From Saitoella complicata NRRL Y-17804 (taxonomy: Eukaryota > Ascomycota > Saitoellomycetes > Saitoellales > Saitoellaceae), in assembly GCF_001661265.1 (NCBI RefSeq), contig NW_017566998.1:186001-250000 (forward strand): a stretch of DNA of 64,000 nt, read 5' to 3'. The notes beneath the pieces were generated by a model. That model searched no databases. It had not been told where the DNA came from and saw only the letters and a program-made list of their open reading frames with translations. Numbering within the stretch: position 1 is the stretch's first letter; each line of letters starts with the position of its first letter. A program made the position numbers and the translations under genes. This document shows, one piece after another, positions 12,431 through 63,427 of the stretch.

Positions 12431-13957
12431 TGTCCTTCAGTTATAAAGAGTGTGTCTCACCAACGTACCGGTTGATTGGATCACCGAGGTCTTCTCGTGC
12501 GCTGCCCGTGCGGTAAGGAAGTATCCCGCTGATGGTTCGACCCAAGTCCGCGATTGGCACAGCCTCGAGCCGTGTTTTCCGCGAAGCGGGATCAGAACGT
12601 CGATAGGAAAGCAAAGGGTCCAATTATAGAGACCGGCAGAATAGTTATTCTGATCGTGATACCGTAAAGATCGAGTGCTGACGGCAAGACTGGACAGGCT
12701 CGAGACGATGATTTGGGGCAGGTTCGAGCCACATGCATCGGGCGCATGCGGGGCCAGTGGCGGCTGAGCAACCTAATTATAGGACCGAGGTATATCAGAC
12801 CGACAGCCGGACCGAGGATTTTTCTTTCTTAAGGGTCCAAAAGTGTAATTTGCCTCAGCGAGTCTTGTACCAGAGTTTGCGTGTTTTCCGGAGAGTGGGG
12901 CCATGGAGGGTGTTCGTCTCCGGCCATCACCACGCTTGAGACTTTACCTTGGTTGTTGACGATGAACCTTGCTAGTAACACAAATTACAGGATCTTTGAA
13001 CGCACGTTTTCCTGTCAAGTTCAGCGGACCCCCGGAGACATGTGAATATCGGCACATGGATGATGCTGAAGGATCCGGACGGGTGGCCATGGACGGCAGT
13101 TAAAAGATTCACGACACACAACATGCCGTGATCGTAGACTTTATCCCCTCAACGTTAGGGTTCAAACCTAATCGGATGCATCATCTTTTTGGACTTCCAT
13201 AAGAGGCCATCTCGTCTTCTTTCTCGATCGTGGGAATTCTTATGACGTACGCTGCATTTGTATACCAACATCTTCCAGGTGATTAAATTAGCAATCTCGA
13301 TGAGTGACAAAGTATGACAGTTTCATGTCACGTTGATTAACGTCAATATACACAGTGAGTCCGAGGATCGCTTTGCCTCCCATCACCGAACTACCCAAAC
13401 ATCACTCAGTCCAGAATGCGGCATGGCGTTTTCCCTTGGTTACGCGTCGTTGTTACGCAGTGAAGGACGTCGAGGAAGAAGCTCTACGAGGCCGGAGTGG
13501 AGGCAGACCAGGCCATTGCCACCTGTCTCCGAGCTACCCTCTCCCACCCACCGAGAAACCCAGCTCCTCCACCCCCAATGTTCATGATCCCTCTCAAGCT
13601 CGTCTTCGGTTCCACATTCCGACGGGAAAAGGGCTTTGCCGGATTTCCGCGGCATGGCTTGTGTTCTTACAGCTTATGCGGTTGTCCTCCAATCGCTGCG
13701 ATTCCCCCACGCCAGCAACTGCGCAAAACTGCACGTAGCCTAACAACCTAAACCATTTCAGCAGTAAAACCTGCATCGACAGGCATCGGCTAACGGCAGT
13801 GTTTGGCCCTCAGTTTCATTAGCGTTACTTTTTTTTGCACATCATGTTGCTTACTAAAGACCTCTTCGTGCCGAGCCGAGGACGTACAAAAAGATCTCCC
13901 TTTGCTGTGTACTGTTGCGACGATAGAAGGCGTACGCGTAGTCGGTAACCGTTGAAG
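12431..13957. other. Long intergenic region upstream of the PDR transporter
   Basis: 1.5 kb between divergent genes, probably the promoter and leader of the ABC transporter. A frame at 13355-13738 has poor coding character. A B-box-like GGGTTCAAACC near 13147 lacks the rest of a tRNA. No perfect PDRE (TCCGYGGA) was seen. Confidence 0.55.
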
Positions 13958-16900
13958 ATGGATCCGACCAAGAATGCTTTCGAGCTCAACCAGCTCCCGG
14001 TTGTTGCTGGTGGTGCTCCCACTGCCAACGTGACTGTAAACAGCACGACAAACAACTCTTCCTCGACTACGCTCGACATGCGCGGTACTGAGGGTGTCAA
14101 CGTCGCCGCTGCCGAGGCCGATTTTATCGAGTTGCAGCGTCAACTCACCAAAGCTTCGCGTGTCGAGCGGCACGATGCGCTCGAGGCTTCCTTCGGGCGC
14201 GACAAAACCGTCGATCTTGAGAGCCATGTTTCGGAGGTTGATTCGACGGCAGAGTTCAACTTGGAGCAGGTGATCCGTGGACAGCAGGACTCCGCCGATG
14301 AGGCCGGTATCAAGAGGAAGCACATTGGTGTCATCTGGGAGAACTTGTCGGTTCGTGGAGTGGGTGGTACCAGACACTTTGTCAAGACTTTCCCTTCTGC
14401 CTTCACTGGCCTCGTCACCACGATCCCCATGTACCTCGCTTCTTTCCTCCCCTCTCAGCGTCCTCGCGAAGTCGAGATCCTTCACAACTTCCACGGTGTC
14501 CTTAAGCCTGGAGAGATGGTCCTCGTTCTTGGTCGTCCGGGATCTGGATGTACTACCTTCCTCAAGATCATCACCAACCAGCGCATTGGCTACACCGGAA
14601 TCGAGGGTGATGTCGCCTACGCCGGTTTGACCGCTGAGGAGTTCGCCGAGCACTACCGCGGAGAAGCCGTCTACAACATGGAAGACGACATCCACCACCC
14701 GACCCTCTCCGTCTCGCAGACGCTCAATTTCGCTCTCGAGACTAAGCTCCCCAACAAGCGCGTTGCCAACCAGCCGAAGGAGTCCTTCAAAGAGTCCGTC
14801 ACTTCCCTCTTGCTCAAGATGTTCAACATTGAGCACACTCGTGACACCATGGTCGGAAACGCCTTCGTGCGTGGTGTCTCCGGAGGAGAGCGTAAGCGTG
14901 TCTCCATTGCCGAGATGATGGTCACCAACGCTTCCGTCCTTGCTTGGGACAACACTACGCGTGGTCTCGATGCTTCTACCGCTCTTGACTACGCAAAGTC
15001 TTTGAGGATTCTCACCGACATCAAGCAGACCTCCACCTTCGTCTCCCTCTACCAGGCATCCGCTGCTATCGCCGACCAGTTTGACAAGGTCATGGTCCTG
15101 GATGCTGGTAGGACTGTCTACTATGGTCCCGTTTCCGAGGCCAGAGCCTACATGGAGAACTTGGGTTTCAAGCCTAAACCCCGTATGACCCTTCCTGACT
15201 ACCTCACCGGTTGTACCGACGAGTACGAGCGCGAGATCCAGGAGGGTTACGAGAACGTCTGCCCCCAGACCAGCGAGGGCTTGGAGCAGGCTTGGTTGAA
15301 TTCTTCTCAGTTCGCTCGCCTGCAGAAGGAGATGGCTGACTACAAGGCCGAAATTGCCCGTGACTCTAAGCCTGTGGAGCAGTTTCGCATGGCCGTTAGG
15401 GAAGACAAGTGGAGCGGAACCTCAAAGAAGTCTGTCTACACCGTTCCCTTCTGGACTCAGGTCTGGGCTCTTACTAAGCGTCAAATGATTCTCAAGTGGC
15501 AGGATAAGTTCTCCCTTGTTGTCTCTACTATCTCCGTTCTCTTAGTTGCTATCATGATTGGTACTGTTTTCTTGGATTTGCCCAAAACTTCTGCTGGTGC
15601 TTTCACTCGTGGTGGTGTTCTCTTCATGGCTCTTCTTTTCAATGCTCTGCAGGCGTTCACTGAACTTCCGGCTACTGTCCTCGGTCGTCCTATTGTCAAC
15701 AAGCACAAGGCGTATGCGTTCCACAGACCTTCAACGTTATGGCTGGGGCAGATTATTGTCGATCTGCCGTTCTCTGCGTTCAAGATCTTCTTGTTCTCTA
15801 TTATCGTCTACTTCATGGCTGACCTTGCTCGTGATGCAGGAGCGTTCTTCACGTTCTTCCTCATTATTTTCACGACGAACATCTTGATGGGTGTCTTGTT
15901 CCGTGTCATCGGTGTCATGTCCGCGAACTTCGACTTCTCTCTGAAGTTTGCGGCTTTGATTATCACCATGTTCGTTCTTGACTGTGGTTACCTCTTGTCC
16001 AAGCCCGACATGCGTCCATGGATGAGTTGGTTCTACTGGATTAACCCGATCGCATACGGTTTCGAAGCCCTTGTTGCCAACGAGTTCGGAAGGGTCAACT
16101 TCACCTGTACCGATGCCAACTTGGTCCCTAGTGGAAGGATGTACACGAACATCGCCAACCAGGTTTGTACCCTCGCTGGAGCTGTGACTGGTACCAACCT
16201 CGTCATCGGATCCGAGTACATCAAGTTGACTTACAACTACGTTGTCTCTCACCTTTGGCGCAACTTCGGTATCCTTGTTGGTTTCACTGCTTTCTTCCTT
16301 TTCTGTAACGCATGGTTCGGTGAGATCTTCACCTTCGGTGCTGGAGGAAAGACCGTTACCCTCTACCAGAAGGAGAACGCGGAGAGAAAGAAGCTCAATC
16401 AGGATCTCGAGGCAAAGCGTACTGCTCGTCGTGCGGGTAAAGAGGACGACAGCCAGCTTGAGATCAAGTCGAAGCAGGTCCTGACATGGGAGGCACTCAA
16501 CTACGATGTTCCCGTTCCTGGTGGTGAGAAGAGGTTGTTGGACGATATCTACGGATACGTCGAGCCCGGAAAGCTTACCGCTCTCATGGGTTCTTCCGGT
16601 GCTGGTAAGACTACCTTGTTGGATGTCCTTGCCAATCGCAAGAACATTGGTGTGATCACTGGTGATGTCCTCATCGATGCCAAGCCGCGTGGTATTGACT
16701 TCCAGCGTGGTACTGCTTACTGTGAGCAGCTCGATGTTCACGAGTCTACCCAGACCGTCCGTGAAGCTCTCCGCTTCTCTGCTTACTTGCGTCAGCCTTT
16801 TGAGGTCCCTATCGCCGAGAAGGACGCTTACGTCGAGGAAGTCATTGCGTTGTTGGAAATGGAGAACATCGCTGATGCCATCATCGGTACCCCCGAGACT

Positions 16901-18370
16901 GGTTTGTCTGTCGAAGAACGCAAGCGTGTCACCATCGGTGTCGAGCTTGCTGCCAAGCCCAAGCTCTTGCTGTTCCTTGACGAGCCCACCTCCGGTCTCG
17001 ACTCCCAGTCTGCTTTCAACATTGTCCGTTTCTTGAAGAAGCTCGCTGCTGCCGGACAGGCCATTCTCTGTACCATCCACCAGCCCAACGCTGCCCTCTT
17101 CGAGAACTTTGACCGTCTCCTCTTGCTTCAGCGTGGTGGTCGTGTCGTGTACTTTGGTGAGATCGGATCTGATGCTCATGTTATGCTGGACTACTTCCGT
17201 CGTAACGGGGCCGATTGTCCGCCTGACGCGAACCCTGCTGAGTACATGTTGGACGCTGTCGGTGCTGGTTCTGCACCTCGTATCGGACCCAAGGACTGGT
17301 CTGATATCTGGCAAGACTCCCCTGAGCTTGCGCAGATTAAGGCAGATGTTCTCCGTCTCAAGGACGAGCGCTCCAGAGCTGGTGATGCCGGAGAGGCTGA
17401 TACCGCTGAGTTCGCCACTCCCCTCGCGTACCAGCTCAAGCTTGTCATCAAGCGTACGTCCCTGACTTTTTGGCGTTCTCCAGACTACGGTTTCACTCGT
17501 CTCTTCAACCACGTTTTGGTCGCATTCTTGACCGGTGTCGCCTACTGGCAAGTCAACAATTCCGTCTCCGCCATGCAACAGCGCGTGTTTGCGATCTTCC
17601 AAGCTACCGTCTTGCCTGCTCTCATCTTGTCCCAGGTCGAGCCTCGTTACGATATCTCTCGTATGATTTTCAACCGTGAGTCGAGTTCGAAGATGTACTC
17701 CCAGTTCGCGTTTGCCTCGTCCATGGTCATTGCAGAGATTCCGTACAGTATTATCTGTGCTGTTGCTTACTTCATTGCGTTCTACTACCCTGCTGGATTC
17801 AACTACAACAGCGACCGTGCCGGATACCAGTTCTTCATGATTCTCATTGATGAGTTCTTCTCCGTTACGCTTGGACAGGCTATCGCTGCTGTCACCCCGA
17901 ACGCCTTCATCGCGGCTTTGTTGAATCCTCTTTTGCTGGTCATCTTTGCTACGTTCTGTGGTGTTACAATTCCTCAGCCTAACCTGCCTCACTTCTACAA
18001 GGAGTTTGTTTACAACATCGACCCCTTCACCCGCTTGATTGGTGGTATGTTGGTGACTGAGCTCCACGACCTCCCCGTCCGCTGCAGCGACGTCGAACTC
18101 GCCCGTTTCCTCGCTCCCGCCGGTCAGACCTGTCTGGAGTACGCCAACACCTTCATGGAGTCCGCGTCTGGTTACCTCGTCAATCCCAGTGCTACCTCTC
18201 CCTCGTACTGTGAGTACTGTCCTTACAGCGTGGGAGACGACTACTTGGCCACGCTCAACTTGGATTACAGCCACAGGTGGAGGGACCTTGGTATTTTCAT
18301 TTGTTTCATTGTTTCGAACCTTGCGATTTTGTTCTGGGGATCGCGTTACCTTAACTTTGCTCGTCGTTAA
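13958..18370 (+). CDS. PDR-type full-length ABC (ABCG) multidrug exporter
   Basis: 1470-residue intronless plasma-membrane exporter of the fungal pleiotropic-drug-resistance type, arranged NBD1-TMD1-NBD2-TMD2. NBD1 has the degenerate fungal Walker A GRPGSGCTTFLK (about residue 194, Cys replacing the usual Lys), signature VSGGERKR (about 306) and Walker B region AWDNTTRGLD. NBD2 has the normal Walker A GSSGAGKTTLL (about 877), a degenerate signature LSVEERKR (about 983) and intact FLDEPTSGLD. This reciprocal asymmetry is the hallmark of Cdr1/Pdr5-like pumps, leaving one catalytic ATP site. Each TMD has about six helices and ends in the usual Cys-containing external loops (CTDANLVPSGRMY; CLEYANTFMESASGYL). 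The ATG at 13958 is preferred over the upstream TTG. The substrate cannot be read from sequence. Confidence 0.95.
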   Translation: MDPTKNAFELNQLPVVAGGAPTANVTVNSTTNNSSSTTLDMRGTEGVNVAAAEADFIELQRQLTKASRVERHDALEASFGRDKTVDLESHVSEVDSTAEFNLEQVIRGQQDSADEAGIKRKHIGVIWENLSVRGVGGTRHFVKTFPSAFTGLVTTIPMYLASFLPSQRPREVEILHNFHGVLKPGEMVLVLGRPGSGCTTFLKIITNQRIGYTGIEGDVAYAGLTAEEFAEHYRGEAVYNMEDDIHHPTLSVSQTLNFALETKLPNKRVANQPKESFKESVTSLLLKMFNIEHTRDTMVGNAFVRGVSGGERKRVSIAEMMVTNASVLAWDNTTRGLDASTALDYAKSLRILTDIKQTSTFVSLYQASAAIADQFDKVMVLDAGRTVYYGPVSEARAYMENLGFKPKPRMTLPDYLTGCTDEYEREIQEGYENVCPQTSEGLEQAWLNSSQFARLQKEMADYKAEIARDSKPVEQFRMAVREDKWSGTSKKSVYTVPFWTQVWALTKRQMILKWQDKFSLVVSTISVLLVAIMIGTVFLDLPKTSAGAFTRGGVLFMALLFNALQAFTELPATVLGRPIVNKHKAYAFHRPSTLWLGQIIVDLPFSAFKIFLFSIIVYFMADLARDAGAFFTFFLIIFTTNILMGVLFRVIGVMSANFDFSLKFAALIITMFVLDCGYLLSKPDMRPWMSWFYWINPIAYGFEALVANEFGRVNFTCTDANLVPSGRMYTNIANQVCTLAGAVTGTNLVIGSEYIKLTYNYVVSHLWRNFGILVGFTAFFLFCNAWFGEIFTFGAGGKTVTLYQKENAERKKLNQDLEAKRTARRAGKEDDSQLEIKSKQVLTWEALNYDVPVPGGEKRLLDDIYGYVEPGKLTALMGSSGAGKTTLLDVLANRKNIGVITGDVLIDAKPRGIDFQRGTAYCEQLDVHESTQTVREALRFSAYLRQPFEVPIAEKDAYVEEVIALLEMENIADAIIGTPETGLSVEERKRVTIGVELAAKPKLLLFLDEPTSGLDSQSAFNIVRFLKKLAAAGQAILCTIHQPNAALFENFDRLLLLQRGGRVVYFGEIGSDAHVMLDYFRRNGADCPPDANPAEYMLDAVGAGSAPRIGPKDWSDIWQDSPELAQIKADVLRLKDERSRAGDAGEADTAEFATPLAYQLKLVIKRTSLTFWRSPDYGFTRLFNHVLVAFLTGVAYWQVNNSVSAMQQRVFAIFQATVLPALILSQVEPRYDISRMIFNRESSSKMYSQFAFASSMVIAEIPYSIICAVAYFIAFYYPAGFNYNSDRAGYQFFMILIDEFFSVTLGQAIAAVTPNAFIAALLNPLLLVIFATFCGVTIPQPNLPHFYKEFVYNIDPFTRLIGGMLVTELHDLPVRCSDVELARFLAPAGQTCLEYANTFMESASGYLVNPSATSPSYCEYCPYSVGDDYLATLNLDYSHRWRDLGIFICFIVSNLAILFWGSRYLNFARR

Positions 18371-19548: not shown

Positions 19549-22161
19549 TCATCTCCTCTTCAACATCCTACCCACCAGATCCTGCTTCTTGGACGTCAAT
19601 GTCTTGTTCACAGACTTATTGTACTCCTTATAGGCCATATCATCCGCTCCAGCGAGCGATGTAAGCGAAGCCGCGAATCGCTTAGCTTTGGGACCAGCTC
19701 CTGCACGATGCATTCCACCAGTCCGGCCCACAAAGTCGTCAGCATCGTCACCGATGTCCTCCTCGCCCGCCTCCTCATTCTGCAGCAAAACCTCCTGTAG
19801 GAGCTCTCGGCGCTCCGCCAAGGTGTTATATGCGATACTCGGCATACTCTCGATACCCTGCAAGTGCGTGATAACCTTGAAAGAGTAACCCTGATCAACC
19901 AAGAATGCTTGTCGCTTCGAAGAGTAGTACATTTCCTGCGTGTCCTTCGACACAAGACTGTAGAAGAACGCATTGAAGCCTTCATCATTCCTCCTCTTCG
20001 CACGAAGGATACGACCCAATCTCTGTGCTTCCTGACGACGACTTCCGTAATGCGAGGAAATTTGGATAAGACACGTTGCTTCCGGCAAATCAATGGAGGT
20101 ATCACCGACTTTCGACAAGAAGATGGTGTTCACCAACTCATTGTGCTGGAAGTTCTCCAAGATACGAAGACGCTCCTGCTGTGGCGTTCCACCAAAGATG
20201 AACGCCTTACCAAGCTTGAGTGCGTAAGCCTTCAACGCGTACACGTTGTCGGAGAAAACAATGATCTTATCACCCCGCTTCTCGTGGTAATCAATCAAGA
20301 ACTGACACGCCTGGAACTTCCTTGGGTTCATGATGTACAACAATGTCCTCTTCCTCAAGGACGCCTTTAAATACTCCTGGTAGAACTCCTGGGTCATGGG
20401 ACACCACACCTCAGCACACTGCACATTGGCAATATGCCCCTTCTGCGACAACTCCATCCAATTCGCCTCATACAACTTCGGCCCGATAAGGTAATTCAAA
20501 TCCACGATCTTGTCATCTTCACGGACCAGGGTAGCGGTGAGACCAAGTTTGGCGTGACATGGAATCACCTCCATGACTTTTCTGAACATGTTTGCGGGAA
20601 CGACGTGCACTTCGTCAAGCAACACGAAACCCCATTCACGGTTCTGCATCCACTCCATGATCTTTTGCGCATCATACGCACGTTTGTTGCGTTGTGCGAC
20701 CATGGAATAGGTAGACACCACGATACCAGCATCACCCTCGAACTTGTCTTTCGTGTCGGAGGTGAAGACTGCAATGGATGACGGTTTAACGTTACTCCAC
20801 TTGAGGAACTCAGCACGCCATTGCATGACAGACACAGAGGAAGTACACAGCACCAAGCAACTCTTCTTGATGGTACAGGCGGCGGTGATACCCACCAATG
20901 TCTTTCCCGCACCACATGGCAAGACGATGATTCCACTCCTCGCACGACCGTTACCAAACATCTTACTCAACGACTTCTCCTGATATGGTCGAATCTGGGT
21001 ACTTGGCTTTAAGTCAATGTCGAGATCGGCGTTGAGCTTGTCGTTTCTGAAATCGTATTCTTCGAGAGCGGGAATGTTGAGTTCGAACATGCGTCTCTTG
21101 ACTTGTTCCAGTTTATCTGCTGGAATTTCGAAGGAGTGGACAGCGTCTTCGTCGTCTTCCTCAACGTCAACTTCGTCAATACCCACGATCGAAGTAAACA
21201 GATCATCGTCGTTCTTCGGCTGCACGTCCTCCACTTTATCTCCCTCTGCACCATCCTTTTCCTCTGTCTTCGCACCCGTCTTATCCTTCCCAGTACCAGC
21301 AATAACCAACCCCTCCATCCTCGGAGCCCTCTCCTTCACAACCGCAACATCCGCCGCAGTCCCCTCCGTCTGAATCCGGCACGACCCGATTTGCGGATCC
21401 TGCAACATCGACTGCAGGAAATCCGCAGTCGTACTCTCGACGTAGTACCTGTTGCCCTTCAAGACGAGACGGACCTTACCTACGGCTTTGGTGACTTCGG
21501 TAATCCACTGCACGATGGATTTGGGGATGGTAAATTTTGAGAGTCGGTTTAGGACGGTAATGATGTCGTTAGGCTGCAATCCGACAGAGACAGCTGCGTG
21601 CATCGCGTTCTCTGTCAATGCATATTCGTGAATATGACTCGGACGACTGACGGGCTCCGCAATCGCAATCAAGAAGTCCTCTGCTTGTTCGGCCAACGGT
21701 GAAAACGCCTCCATATAAATCTTCGCAGACTTCGGATCAATCCACAACGGTCGAGAATCATGATCAGGCTTCAAATCCAACCATGAATGTTCGAATCTCT
21801 GAAACAAATGGCTGACAGAATCTCCCCTAAACTCCGCCGGCCGATCATCGAAATCATGCTCCTCATTCAACCCATCCGTGATCCGCGTTTTCACGGGTGC
21901 AGTCGAATCAGATCGTTTACTCGCTGCTGGTCGTTTTGATCTCAATGCAAGTGATTTCCTCGGTGCTGCGAATGCCTCGTCGTTGTCGTCAAAGCCTGCT
22001 TCGTCGTAGTTGTCGTCGGAGTAAGCGGCGATATCGTAGTCATCAAAGTTGCTCCCGTCTGAGAGATCCTCATCGGCGGCTCCCGTTGGACCTGATGCGG
22101 CGGCACGGCGGGCACGTTTGATCGTGGTGCTGGCCACCGAGGAACCGGCTCTCTTCGACAT
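19549..22161 (-). CDS. SSL2: TFIIH 3'-5' DNA helicase/translocase subunit (XPB)
   Basis: 870-residue intronless homologue of yeast Ssl2/Rad25 and human XPB, which opens promoters in transcription initiation and acts in nucleotide-excision repair. An acidic N-terminus is followed by a damage-recognition-like domain. Helicase motif I is [11 protein letters not shown] (about residue 413), and motif II is LLDEVHVV (DEVH box, about 515). A RED motif is visible in [12 protein letters not shown], and motif VI in [18 protein letters not shown]. The C-terminus [13 protein letters not shown] is basic. Length matches the family (about 800-850). The extended acidic, repeat-free N-terminus is the only lineage-specific part. 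Confidence 0.97.
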
Positions 22162-22495
22162 CGCCGGCGCTGGTCACACTCAGCGAATAGGATATACCTC
22201 AGTGAATGCTCAGCAGATACCGTTCCGCACTTGTCCGTTCAGTTATAGACAGAGAGAGGGAAGGCGGACAGGAGGAGGGTGTGTATGCTCAGGGTGACTC
22301 GTGTTGGTATACGCTGCACGAACATGCAATGGACTGCACGGCCCCGGTAACGTCGCCACATTACGTAGTTCAGCAATACCGCAATTGTATGTGAATGGAG
22401 AATGCTTCATTCCTCCTTGATATCAATCCTAGATGCCATTACCTTTTGCCTATCTAACCATCCGTTTTCCTGTATAACGTCCAAGCCGTTTATAA

Positions 22496-57700: not shown

Positions 57701-57702
57701 TA

Positions 57703-57731
57703 CTGCTGTGTGCAAAATTCTTGACGCGCAT
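57703..57731 (+). repeat. Left terminal inverted repeat of the transposon
   Basis: 29 bp, perfectly matching the inverted right end at 60725-60753. Contains GTGCAAAATTCTTGAC, the probable transposase-binding core that recurs in the centre of the element. Confidence 0.92.
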
Positions 57732-57821
57732 TTTCGTACATGCGCGAGACCCCTGTAACGGTAACATAAAACACCTCCAAACAGCTCGAAAAAGGGTCTA
57801 GGAAACTCAGTAAGGGTCGAA

Positions 57822-58919
57822 ATGCTTGGGAAGATATGTGCCGATGTCGACCGTGACAAGGTAATCAACCAATATGCCTCTGGGAAGGATGTCTACGAAA
57901 TCGCGACCAACATTGAGAGGTCTCCTTGCACGGTTTACCGAATTGTGAAGAGATTCGAGGAGACAGGGCTTACTGAGCGTAAGGGCAACTCAACCTGCGG
58001 GCGCAAATCGGCTGTTGACGAGTTTCTGGGCTCGGTAAGTGGACGATTACTGCTCATGGGTACCACCAAGGGCATGACTCAATGACCGCAGCAAATCAAG
58101 TACTTGTACGACAAAAACCCTACCCTGTATCAGGACGACTGTGCTGAGTTCCTCAATGATCAATTCGCTACATCTCTATCGCGCTACCATGTCACCCGCT
58201 ACCTGCAAAAGATTGGATATACCCGTAAGGTTTTGACCTTACGGGCAGCCCAGCGCAACCCTATCTTACGCGCAAACCATGCCATTGAAATGGCTGACTA
58301 TACTCAAGAGCAGCTCGTATTTCTCGACGAATCAGCCGTGGATGAGCGCACGGGTTCACGAAAATTTGGATACTCACCAACAGGCGTCCGCGCAATCCAG
58401 GAGAGGGTCTTTGGACATTCGACACGTTGGAGTGTGCTGCCGGCATTGACTATTGAAGGTTTGAAGGCTCTGCGGATCTTTCAGGGGTCCTTCAATGCTG
58501 ACCGATTCGTCGAATTCATCGAAGAGGACCCGCTACCAATCGTTGGGCCATTCCCTGGTCCAAACAGTGTCATTGTGCTTGATAACTGTCGAATTCATCA
58601 TGATCCAAGGGTTGCTGAACTCTTAGTGAACCAACATGGCTGCCGCATTGTGTTCTTACCGCCATACTCACCCGACCTCAACCCAATTGAGCTCTGTTTC
58701 AGCATGATGAAGGCCTGGATGAAGCGCAATAACAACGACCCTGACGCCCGTCTCGACCCTGCCTCATTTGTTCGTAAAGCGATCGACTATATCAATACAG
58801 ATCTCGAAAAGATCCGCAATTTGTACACGGGCTGTGGTTATGCGCTGACCGGCATGGATTTGCGCCAATATGTTGATAACAACCGTGAAATGGCCGCTCG
58901 AGCGGCTGAGCGGGTGTAG
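57822..58919 (+). CDS. Tc1/mariner/IS630-family DDE transposase (intron-containing, intact)
   Basis: Exons 57822..58034 and 58092..58919 are joined across a 57-nt GTAAGT...GCAG intron, giving 346 residues. The N-terminus has a helix-turn-helix (DKVINQYASGKDVYEIATNI ERSPCTVYRIVKRF), and a second DNA-binding region follows (SLSRYHVTRYLQKIGYTRKV). The DDE_3 endonuclease has its first Asp in LVFLDESAVDERT, the second in SVIVLDNCRIHHDPRV and the Glu in PPYSPDLNPIELCFSMMKAW. I count 35 residues between the second Asp and the Glu. No stop or frameshift is seen, and all three catalytic residues are present. The intron must be spliced for a full protein, because the unspliced frame stops inside it. 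Confidence 0.9.
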
Positions 58920-59085
58920 CTATCATTCATTAGTTCTTATCAGTATTTTCATGAATCAAAGGAACATTTCGTTCATTATTCACGTACTTGCCGTTCTCAC
59001 GGGTCCTTTCCCTAACAAAATGGCCGGGAACTGCCCCACCTACATAGCATGCGAGTGTAGCTCACTAGATTACGCTCCTCTGAGA

Positions 59086-59240
59086 CAAGAATTATGCACG
59101 CTAAGGTAGGGCATGCTGTTTTGTCAAGGTTTGTGCACGCTAACGCACGCTAACGCAGGTATTGCTACGCTAACGCAGGTATTGAGCGTGCATAATCCTT
59201 GACAAAACAGCATGCCCTGCCTTAGCGTGCATAATTCTTG
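59086..59240. repeat. Central palindrome with TIR-like arms
   Basis: Arms 59086-59129 and 59197-59240 are 44-bp inverted copies with one mismatch. Each arm's outer end carries GTGCATAATTCTTG-type sequence close to the element's own TIR. The loop has short direct repeats (GCTAACGCAGGTATTG twice). The single mismatch falls where a TA follows the TIR-like part in the left arm and CA in the right. It lies between the two convergent genes. Confidence 0.85.
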
Positions 59241-59324
59241 ACAACGTCGTTTCGTGCTCGAGTACAGGTTTGCAAAAGAATCAAGCATTGTGGATTGAAA
59301 AGCAGTACAGTACGACAGAGATAA

Positions 59325-60661
59325 CTATAGATCAAAGCTTTCGTCAAACTCCTGGCTTTCGTAGACCTCGAAGGGTGTCACCTCGAGGCCTAGGGGTTCC
59401 CTAGGCTTCGATTGCTGCTCCCGCTGGATACCTTTCCAAACCGGCCACCATTTGCGCATAATCCTCACCCATCCATGCTTCACAGGCGGTAGGCCATTCG
59501 GATCGATGTTCTTGAGATCGTCTAGCACTACTCCATTGTCGACAATTGCATCTCGAACCGTCTGGCAATTAAAGTCGATGTATTCCGGAACCTTGGTCTT
59601 GACATAGGCTAGAAACCCGTCCAAATCATCAGCAGCCGGCCCTTGAAGAGGGCTCGAGCCCCTGAGCATTTGCGTGTCAATGGTTGTTGGGGTAGGGGTC
59701 GGAGTAGGCTTACTCGAGGGAGATAGCGGCGGTAGATCGAATCGAGGCGCAGTCACTGGTGTAGGTAGTTGAGGCATACCGGACGAAGAGTGCCTGCTTT
59801 CAGGTGTTTCCGACTGATCTGTCGACTTGTATGGTGTGAGCAACCCAGCGAAAAGGGGATCATGGAAGGGTGGATCCTCAGCGGTAACCCCATGTTCTTT
59901 CGCAACCAAGTACTTAGACCATAGATTGAGGAGATCATTGGAGATGTATCGATGATAGCCAGAAAAAGGATGAACATAGCAGTACTGCTGGTGGTGCTTG
60001 GCGCATTTGTGCTTAGCCTGTAGGGTCTGAACAGCAAGGATCATTTTCTGAGTCTGAGAGGGGTGCAACGGGGTTTGCTGGTCGAGCTCAAATTGAGAAG
60101 CAGCCCTTGTAGGGTCGTAGTGTGTTTCGATTAGGATAAAAGCTGACCATTTGACCTTGGGTGTGTTGCGCTCAGTGTGGACGGCATCAATGAAGCCTTC
60201 CCAGTCGTCCTCCGTTCGTAGTCTACACCATGGTGCATCCCGGCTCCTTCCACGGCAGACTTTCCAGTTGATATTGGGCTTCAGGGAGTATTTGTTGACG
60301 CCTTCGACGACCATATGATCATGACTGAGCTCCTCGAGGGCGACATCGATCAAAAGCTGGCCTTGGTCGGCCCAAGACCTGACTGGATTGACCGTCCAGG
60401 GTGCTTGAGGATACCTGTGGTTCTTTTGCCAGTGACGAGAACGAAGACCTGGAAGTCGTCGAATCTGCTGATAGCATCAACCGGTGCGTCTTCGTCTTCG
60501 AGTTCGATGACTGTCTTAGGTCGTTTTTCCCTCCGGACTGTATTTGTAGGTGGTGGTGAGGCTGCATCTTCGAGGAGACGGGAGGGCGGTTTAGGGGTAC
60601 GAGACGATGCCCTGCGCTTATACGAAGCCTTAGCAGCTCCTTTCAGCTTCCTTGGAGGCAT
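59325..60661 (-). CDS. Transposon-borne second gene, unknown function
   Basis: Exons 60661..60415 and 60361..59325 (53-nt intron, GTATCC...CAAG) give 427 residues with no stop. The N-terminus is basic and nuclear-like (MPPRKLKGAAKASYKRRASS). A folded-looking domain follows (QLLIDVALEELSHDHMVVEG ... WSAFILIETHYDPTRAASQF). Next is a Cys/His cluster C202-x2-HH-x3-C210-x2-H213 followed by ISNDLLNLWSKYLV, which could bind zinc. A Pro/Ser/Thr linker leads to a C-terminal domain (DLDGFLAYVKTKVPEYIDFN ... GWVRIMRKWWPVWKGIQREQ). I do not recognise it. It is not a transposase. It could be a DNA-binding accessory factor or a captured host gene. Confidence 0.75.
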
Positions 60662-60724
60662 TTTCAAGGTTTGGCGGCGTGTTTGGTGGATTGGTCGTGT
60701 CCTGCACGAATATGCGGTAAAATG

Positions 60725-60753
60725 ATGCGCGTCAAGAATTTTGCACACAGCAG
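60725..60753 (-). repeat. Right terminal inverted repeat of the transposon
   Basis: 29-bp perfect inverted copy of 57703-57731, followed by TA at 60754-60755. Confidence 0.92.
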
Positions 60754-60755
60754 TA

Positions 60756-61141: not shown

Positions 61142-63247
<2,106 letters not shown>

Positions 63248-63427
63248 CCTGGTCGAGCTCGATGTCTTTGTCAGAGAGATCTGTACGGCCTCTGGACTTT
63301 ACCATAGAAATAAGCTCGGGCCTACAACGCGGGGGAGGCTGAACGCGCGGTGCAGTTCGGCACAGGCGGGAAACCTTGCAGCATACACCCGAGCAACAAG
63401 AGGAGCAAAAACGGGGCGAGAAATGTG
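63248..63427. promoter_or_regulatory. Bidirectional promoter, esterase / ZUP1-like gene
   Basis: 180 bp between divergent ATGs. Confidence 0.4.

What the first reader, a model, noticed from the sequence alone, without database searches (positions are those of the whole stretch)
57703..60753. A DNA transposon carrying a transposase and a second, unrelated gene
The sequence directly shows 29-bp perfect TIRs with TA on both sides, an intact DDE transposase on the plus strand, and a second intact two-exon gene on the minus strand between the same TIRs. Known Tc1/mariner/IS630 elements are usually 1.2-2 kb with only a transposase gene. A 3-kb member with a conserved partner gene would be a new autonomous-element architecture. 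Inference: the partner could aid TIR binding, target choice, nuclear import or host silencing evasion.
Basis: partly seen in the sequence, partly recalled or inferred. Interest (0 to 1): 0.88.

Follow-up and report, generated by a model that had tools for sequence, protein, structure and literature searches.

The report
Fungal two-gene mariner-type transposon
This is a 3-kb jumping gene of the IS630/Tc1/mariner kind, probably in a fungus, that carries a second gene of unknown family beside its transposase; similar two-gene elements are already described, but this one has extra copies of part of its end signal in a central hairpin.

Summary
A 3,051-bp element (57703-60753) has perfect 29-bp terminal inverted repeats with TA on both sides. 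It carries an IS630/Tc1/mariner transposase on the plus strand, complete only if a 57-nt intron with an in-frame TGA is removed. A convergent second gene of about 427 codons lies on the minus strand, and codon statistics support it. Its protein matched nothing significant in Pfam, NCBIfam, the PDB sequences, or the viral, prokaryote-genome and plasmid collections.

It holds four more copies of the 16-base TIR core GTGCAWAATTCTTGAC, placed so that each gene is bracketed by inverted copies. This may be a scar of two fused one-gene units, or a set of inner binding sites.

The novelty claim is weaker than stated. Two-gene Tc1/mariner elements are in print: one in Pyrenophora tritici-repentis (46 members, 31 near-identical with both genes), Mariner elements with Fanzor1, and ciliate Tec and TBE. 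The decisive test, whether 3-kb copies with both genes recur, could not be run: no fungal genome collection was available. I file it as a new member of a known kind, with an unplaced partner gene and an odd central hairpin.

The parts
57701..57702 (.). left TA (presumed target site duplication)
57703..57731 (+). left 29-bp terminal inverted repeat
57822..58034 (+). transposase exon 1 (start codon 119 bp inside the left end; helix-turn-helix region)
58035..58091 (+). 57-nt transposase intron, GTAAGT...CAG, containing an in-frame TGA
   Evidence: splicing inferred, no RNA data
58092..58919 (+). transposase exon 2: catalytic D150, D235, E271 (35 residues between the last two), DDE_3 domain
59084..59242 (.). 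central palindrome between the convergent genes: 56-nt arms 59086-59141 and 59185-59240, 95% complementary; four TIR-core copies at 59084-59099(-), 59123-59138(-), 59188-59203(+), 59227-59242(+)
59147..59184 (+). two tandem copies of a 20-bp unit in the loop of the palindrome
59325..60361 (-). partner gene exon 2 (boundary at 60361 uncertain)
60362..60414 (-). likeliest partner intron (53 nt); 28 other splice pairs listed also give an open frame
   Evidence: splicing inferred, no RNA data
60415..60661 (-). partner gene exon 1 (start codon 92 bp inside the right end; basic N-terminus, 15 K/R and 3 D/E in the first 50 residues)
60725..60753 (-). right 29-bp terminal inverted repeat
60754..60755 (.). 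right TA (presumed target site duplication)

Best explanation
It is a recently inserted, apparently intact two-gene DNA transposon of the IS630/Tc1/mariner group, probably in a fungal chromosome. Shown: the perfect outer TIRs flanked by TA, a transposase frame with the catalytic D, D, E, a second coding frame, and the TIR-core copies in the centre. Inferred: the transposase binds the outer TIRs, cuts the whole 3-kb unit out and inserts it at TA, so the partner gene travels with it. Each gene starts about 100 bp inside its own end and both converge on the central hairpin. Because each half (TIR, transposase, inner core copies; inner core copies, partner, TIR) looks like a unit with inverted ends, I think the element most likely arose when two neighbouring TIR-bounded units became one, and the perfect outer ends now define the mobile unit. 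The partner is most likely an element-borne nuclear protein; whether it is a helper or a mere passenger is open.
For: Perfect 29-bp TIRs with TA. IS630 equivalog and DDE_3 matches. Triad aligned with two bacterial IS630 proteins. Both genes lie wholly between the TIRs, and over each exon tested (transposase exon 2, both partner exons) the expected frame scores best of six. Of 11 places in the window with up to 4 mismatches to the core GTGCAWAATTCTTGAC, the 6 with 3 or fewer are all in the element (2 in the TIRs, 4 in the centre) and the 5 with 4 are all outside it. 200 simulated inner sequences had a mean of 0.04 copies and at most 1. The inner copies are oriented so that each half has inverted cores. 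TpA/ApT is 0.69 in the element and 0.68 in the window left of it, so no sign of RIP by that index. Host probably a fungus: the XPB frame in the window scores up to 1,100 bits against chains named RAD25 and at most 861 against the others listed.
Against: One copy only: no second copy, empty site, transcript or movement was seen. A TA on both sides is weak evidence of a target duplication. The core motif was written after seeing the TIRs and the centre, so its statistic is partly chosen after the fact. The inner cores lack the full 29-bp TIR and a TA at a matching distance, so two former complete elements are not proven. The partner intron is not fixed. The codon scores of both element genes (-0.03 to 0.02) are lower than those of 6 of 7 host frames (0.09 to 0.44; the seventh -0.06), though the table was trained on those same frames, and in several 60-nt windows of the partner another frame scores better.
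Confidence: 0.62

Rival explanations
1. Passenger (transduplication): an ordinary one-gene element picked up a host gene, which is copied along but does nothing for transposition.
For: This is how the Pyrenophora authors read their Tc1/Mariner element with a second ORF (PMC3538342, section 20). The partner has no recognisable transposition domain.
Against: The frame is open over about 427 codons with codon scores like the transposase's, and its start lies 92 bp from its end, mirroring the transposase. A young capture would also be intact, so this is weak.
Confidence: 0.35
2. Helper: the partner is a co-factor or regulator that binds DNA or the transposase, perhaps at the central core copies, and is needed for efficient movement or control of dose.
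For: Four extra TIR-core copies in the centre. Basic N-terminus (15 K/R in 50 residues) and one C-x2-H-x4-C stretch; helical C-terminus in a model of moderate confidence. Two-protein transposons exist in the Harbinger/PHIS groups (recalled; PMC4482050 seen in a search listing only).
Against: No domain match, no significant fold match (7 weak Foldseek rows, best E 6.6), no second copy to show conservation.
Confidence: 0.3
3. Two adjacent, independent insertions: a 1.4-kb transposase element and a 1.6-kb partner element side by side, with degenerate inner ends.
For: Inner cores are oriented as a right end next to the transposase and a left end next to the partner, with several TA in the spacer.
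Against: Outer TIRs are identical over 29 bp while inner ends share little more than the 16-base core with them; the two inner arms are 95% complementary over 56 nt, beyond what the outer ends share.
Confidence: 0.2
4. The central palindrome is a nested foldback insert unrelated to the ends.
For: 56-nt arms at 95% complementarity and a strong hairpin (z -14) would fit such an insert.
Against: It holds the TIR core four times; the cores face the opposite way from those of a normal miniature element of this family; the 15 nt on either side of it share no direct repeat longer than 3 nt.
Confidence: 0.15

Closest known systems
Tc1/Mariner element with a second ORF in Pyrenophora tritici-repentis (PMC3538342, section 20 read)
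   Same: Fungal Tc1/Mariner-superfamily element with a transposase and a second coding region between the TIRs; 46 members, 31 near-identical with both genes.
   Different: Its second ORF matches PF08946; ours has no Pfam match above a cut-off. Sequences were not compared, and I did not see its Figure S5.
Mariner elements with Fanzor1 (PGv-1, PUl-1; PMC3627910, passages)
   Same: Mariner transposase plus one or two further proteins, TIRs, TA duplications.
   Different: Our partner has no Pfam match and no C-x2-C pair, so no sign of the C4 zinc finger of Fanzor/TnpB; convergent genes around a palindrome here.
Ciliate TBE and Tec elements (PMC7325037, section 8 read)
   Same: Tc1/mariner transposase plus further genes, in Tec one on the opposite strand.
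   Different: Three ORFs, about 80-bp or 700-bp TIRs, DD34E, ciliate hosts.
Bacterial IS630 family
   Same: Transposase matches NF033545 at 5.7e-47; plasmid-borne relatives at 26.5-31.8% identity in the 20 rows listed of 891 records; same triad in the two proteins aligned.
   Different: Probable intron, 35 instead of 34 residues between the last two catalytic residues of the two aligned bacterial proteins, second gene.

Membership tests
IS630/Tc1/mariner superfamily | DDE transposase with the superfamily's catalytic domain | tested here: met
   DDE_3 E=1e-31, IS630 equivalog E=5.7e-47, D150/D235/E271 aligned; PDB sequence matches only weak: SETMAR E 0.12 and 0.31, Sleeping Beauty E 0.45
IS630/Tc1/mariner superfamily | N-terminal helix-turn-helix DNA-binding region | tested here: met
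   HTH_23 (8.4e-06) and HTH_28 (1.5e-05) just above their cut-offs, residues 13-50; HTH_29 and others below theirs
IS630/Tc1/mariner superfamily | TIRs flanked by TA | tested here: met
   29-bp perfect TIRs, TA both sides; that TA was duplicated on insertion is not shown
IS630/Tc1/mariner superfamily | mobility (several copies, empty sites) | not testable with these tools
   no genome held; no fungal collection
Traveler (DD35E) family of Tc1/mariner | DD35E spacing | tested here: met
   35 residues between D235 and E271
Traveler (DD35E) family of Tc1/mariner | monophyly with Traveler transposases of vertebrates | not tested
   no Traveler sequence was compared; PMC7093834 seen as search listing only; spacing alone is no membership
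Fanzor1-carrying Mariner | Fanzor/TnpB protein as partner, with its C4 zinc finger (motif as given in PMC3627910) | tested here: not met
   no Pfam match except PMD at E 0.09-0.12, below cut-off; 5 cysteines, no C-x2-C pair
SAM domain (C-terminus of the partner) | sequence or fold match to SAM domains | tested here: inconclusive
   helices at 8-18, 27-36, 41-44, 54-78 in a model of pLDDT 64.5, pTM 0.47; 2 of 7 Foldseek rows are SAM tandems but at E 7.4 and 8.4, prob 0.09 and 0.07; no Pfam match

The most novel reading that the evidence does not exclude
A two-component Tc1/mariner system built by fusing two TIR-bounded units: a transposase unit and a unit for a dedicated second protein. The central palindrome with four TIR cores is a working control site where the partner or the transposase binds to regulate or direct movement of the whole.
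Probability: 0.15. Interest if true: 0.62.

Novelty: new member of a known kind. Interest (0 to 1): 0.36.

Why it matters
If copies with both genes recur under selection, the element would be a clean case for asking whether Tc1/mariner transposons, usually thought to need only their transposase, can depend on a second protein. The inner core copies would make the transposase-binding question testable with one short DNA. If it is a passenger, it is one more example of gene capture by a DNA transposon.

Tried and rejected
Whole-genome search for further copies: no genome is held for this window. Viral contigs: the partner as query matched 1 stretch by pattern and the transposase 7, none confirmed. 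A TIR-core pattern gave 5 contigs with one exact match each, which I take as chance and did not examine, except that script 70 searched them. Prokaryote genomes: 25 pattern matches for the partner, 0 confirmed. A pattern for the peptide DNCRIHHD gave 2 viral contigs and 1 genome contig; none of the three gave a transposase row at E of 1 or less. An alignment query gave 51 viral-contig loci with IS630-type relatives. None of the 63 loci held encodes a partner relative at E of 1 or less. Plasmids: 891 of 72,556 records match the transposase, all under 60% identity, none the partner at E of 0.1.

Partner fold: the long model is useless (pLDDT 34.3); the C-terminal 82 residues gave pLDDT 64.5 and no significant match. 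I recall that the partner's layout (a small beta-grasp-like part, a Cys/His stretch, a SAM-like end) resembles uncharacterised proteins common in mushroom-forming fungi; this is recollection, and no call supports it (Pfam with the pieces gave 0 families). No Rfam match in the window at gathering thresholds. The joined flanks show open frames across the empty site of at most 122 aa, not followed up. Of four bacterial loci fetched, two were aligned. PHROGs and PADLOC were not run. Fanzor was rejected as the partner.

Full report
What is there. The element spans 57703-60753 (3,051 bp). Its ends are perfect 29-bp inverted repeats, CTGCTGTGTGCAAAATTCTTGACGCGCAT, with TA at 57701-57702 and 60754-60755. 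A 21-base part of the TIR is found nowhere else in the window with up to 3 mismatches, and 100 shuffles gave none. The repeat finder extends the pair to 36 nt at 94%, so a few flanking letters also match.

Transposase. The plus-strand frame carries DDE_3 (E 1e-31) and HTH_23 and HTH_28 just above their cut-offs, and the IS630 equivalog NF033545 (E 5.7e-47). PDB sequence matches are weak: an uncharacterised protein at E 0.0051, two SETMAR entries at 0.12 and 0.31, Sleeping Beauty at 0.45. It is not one open frame: a TGA lies at 58083-58085. A GTAAGT...CAG intron, 58035-58091, 57 nt, removes it and leaves 346 aa. Alignment with two bacterial IS630 proteins (two of the four fetched) puts the catalytic residues at D150, D235 and E271; 35 residues lie between the last two, against 34 in the two bacterial proteins, which have a one-column gap there. 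That is a DD35E signature; I do not infer kinship with the vertebrate Traveler family from it.

Partner gene. The minus-strand frame from 60661 to 59325 changes frame once. In 60-nt windows the best codon score moves from the exon-1 frame to the exon-2 frame between windows starting at 60421 and 60406. That fits a 53-nt intron 60414-60362, but 29 splice pairs (donors GT, or GC followed by AA; lengths 28-160) keep the frame open. The same scan is not clean: at 60571 the three frames tie, and in three of the last four windows (starting 60286, 60271 and 60256) another frame beats the exon-2 frame. Over whole exons the expected frame is best of six for both partner exons and for transposase exon 2. 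Scores are -0.03, 0.00 and 0.02, under those of 6 of 7 host frames, on which the table was trained. GC at third positions is 0.57 in partner exon 2, 0.48 in partner exon 1 and 0.55 in transposase exon 2, against 0.56-0.71 in the seven host frames. Among 2,000 simulated sequences of the region none had a frame of 355 codons or more; the longest was 332.

Partner protein. There is no Pfam match beyond PMD at E 0.09-0.12, under its cut-off, no NCBIfam match for the long exon-2 frame, no PDB match for that frame at E 10, and for two pieces only one row at E 1.3 and none. It has 5 cysteines and no C-x2-C; one C-x2-H-x4-C stretch begins at residue 202, and the first 50 residues hold 15 K/R and 3 D/E. 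Structure prediction without an alignment gave nothing usable for the long form (pLDDT 34.3). The C-terminal 82 residues gave a helical model of moderate confidence (pLDDT 64.5) with only chance-level fold matches, 2 of 7 being SAM tandems.

The centre. Between the convergent genes lies a palindrome with 56-nt arms (59086-59141, 59185-59240; 95% complementary) and a 43-nt loop with two tandem 20-bp units. As RNA the region 59060-59260 folds at -112 kcal/mol against -56.3 (sd 4.0) for 200 shuffles, none as good. It holds four copies of the TIR core GTGCAWAATTCTTGAC with 0, 1, 1 and 3 mismatches. In the whole window there are 11 places with up to 4 mismatches: the 6 with 3 or fewer are all in the element, the 5 with 4 are all outside it. 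Simulated inner sequences had 0.04 copies on average, at most 1 in 200. The W in the core was set after seeing both forms, so the figure flatters somewhat; the repeat search, run before, found the same similarity (families D1, D2 and pair I8). From the loop outwards each arm carries the core in the orientation that an end would have, so each half of the element is bracketed by inverted cores. The 15 nt on either side of the palindrome share no direct repeat longer than 3 nt, so nothing marks it as a separate insertion.

Setting. The host is most likely a fungus: the XPB frame at 19555-22173 scores up to 1,100 bits against chains named RAD25 and at most 861 against the other XPB chains listed. 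TpA/ApT is 0.69 in the element and 0.68 in the window left of it; the second RIP index is 1.22 against 1.10. Neither points to repeat-induced point mutation. Intact frames and identical TIRs suggest a recent insertion (inference).

How it works. Shown: the anatomy. Inferred from the family: the transposase binds the TIRs, excises the unit and inserts it at TA. Inferred here: the unit includes the partner, because no other TIR of this kind lies in the window. The half-and-half layout suggests that two TIR-bounded units were fused. Whether the partner helps or only rides is open; I give 0.35 to passenger and 0.3 to helper, and these two are rivals within the main reading.

What is known. One ORF is usual in this group (PMC8533490, passages), but two-gene Tc1/mariner elements are in print. 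In Pyrenophora tritici-repentis a Tc1/Mariner-superfamily element holds a second ORF between its TIRs; of 46 members, 31 are near-identical and carry both genes (PMC3538342, section 20 read). Mariner elements with Fanzor1, some with three genes, are described in PMC3627910 (passages including part of the abstract). Ciliate TBE and Tec have three ORFs (PMC7325037, section 8 read). A larger single-gene Tc1 element of 5,659 bp is known from a yeast (PMC9977792, passages). My ten searches of the open-licence library (one search listed none) listed no paper that I recognised as describing this element, its partner, or a central palindrome with TIR cores in a Tc1/mariner element. Most listed papers were seen only as title and start of abstract, and subscription journals are mostly missing from the library.

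Verdict. The claim of a new architecture fails on precedent at the level at which it was made. What remains of interest is the unplaced partner and the central cores.

Noticed in passing
   Followed up: yes
window 58035-58091: The transposase intron is a multiple of 3 and holds an in-frame stop, so a retained intron would give a short N-terminal helix-turn-helix protein; possible dose control, untested.
   Followed up: no
window 13949-18367: Long uninterrupted plus-strand frame (1,473 aa) that reads like a PDR-type ABC transporter (by eye, not searched).
   Followed up: no
window 62876-63298, minus strand: A frame that reads like the start of a carboxylesterase, about 2 kb right of the element, with the rest of the gene perhaps split by introns or damage (by eye; not searched).
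   Followed up: no
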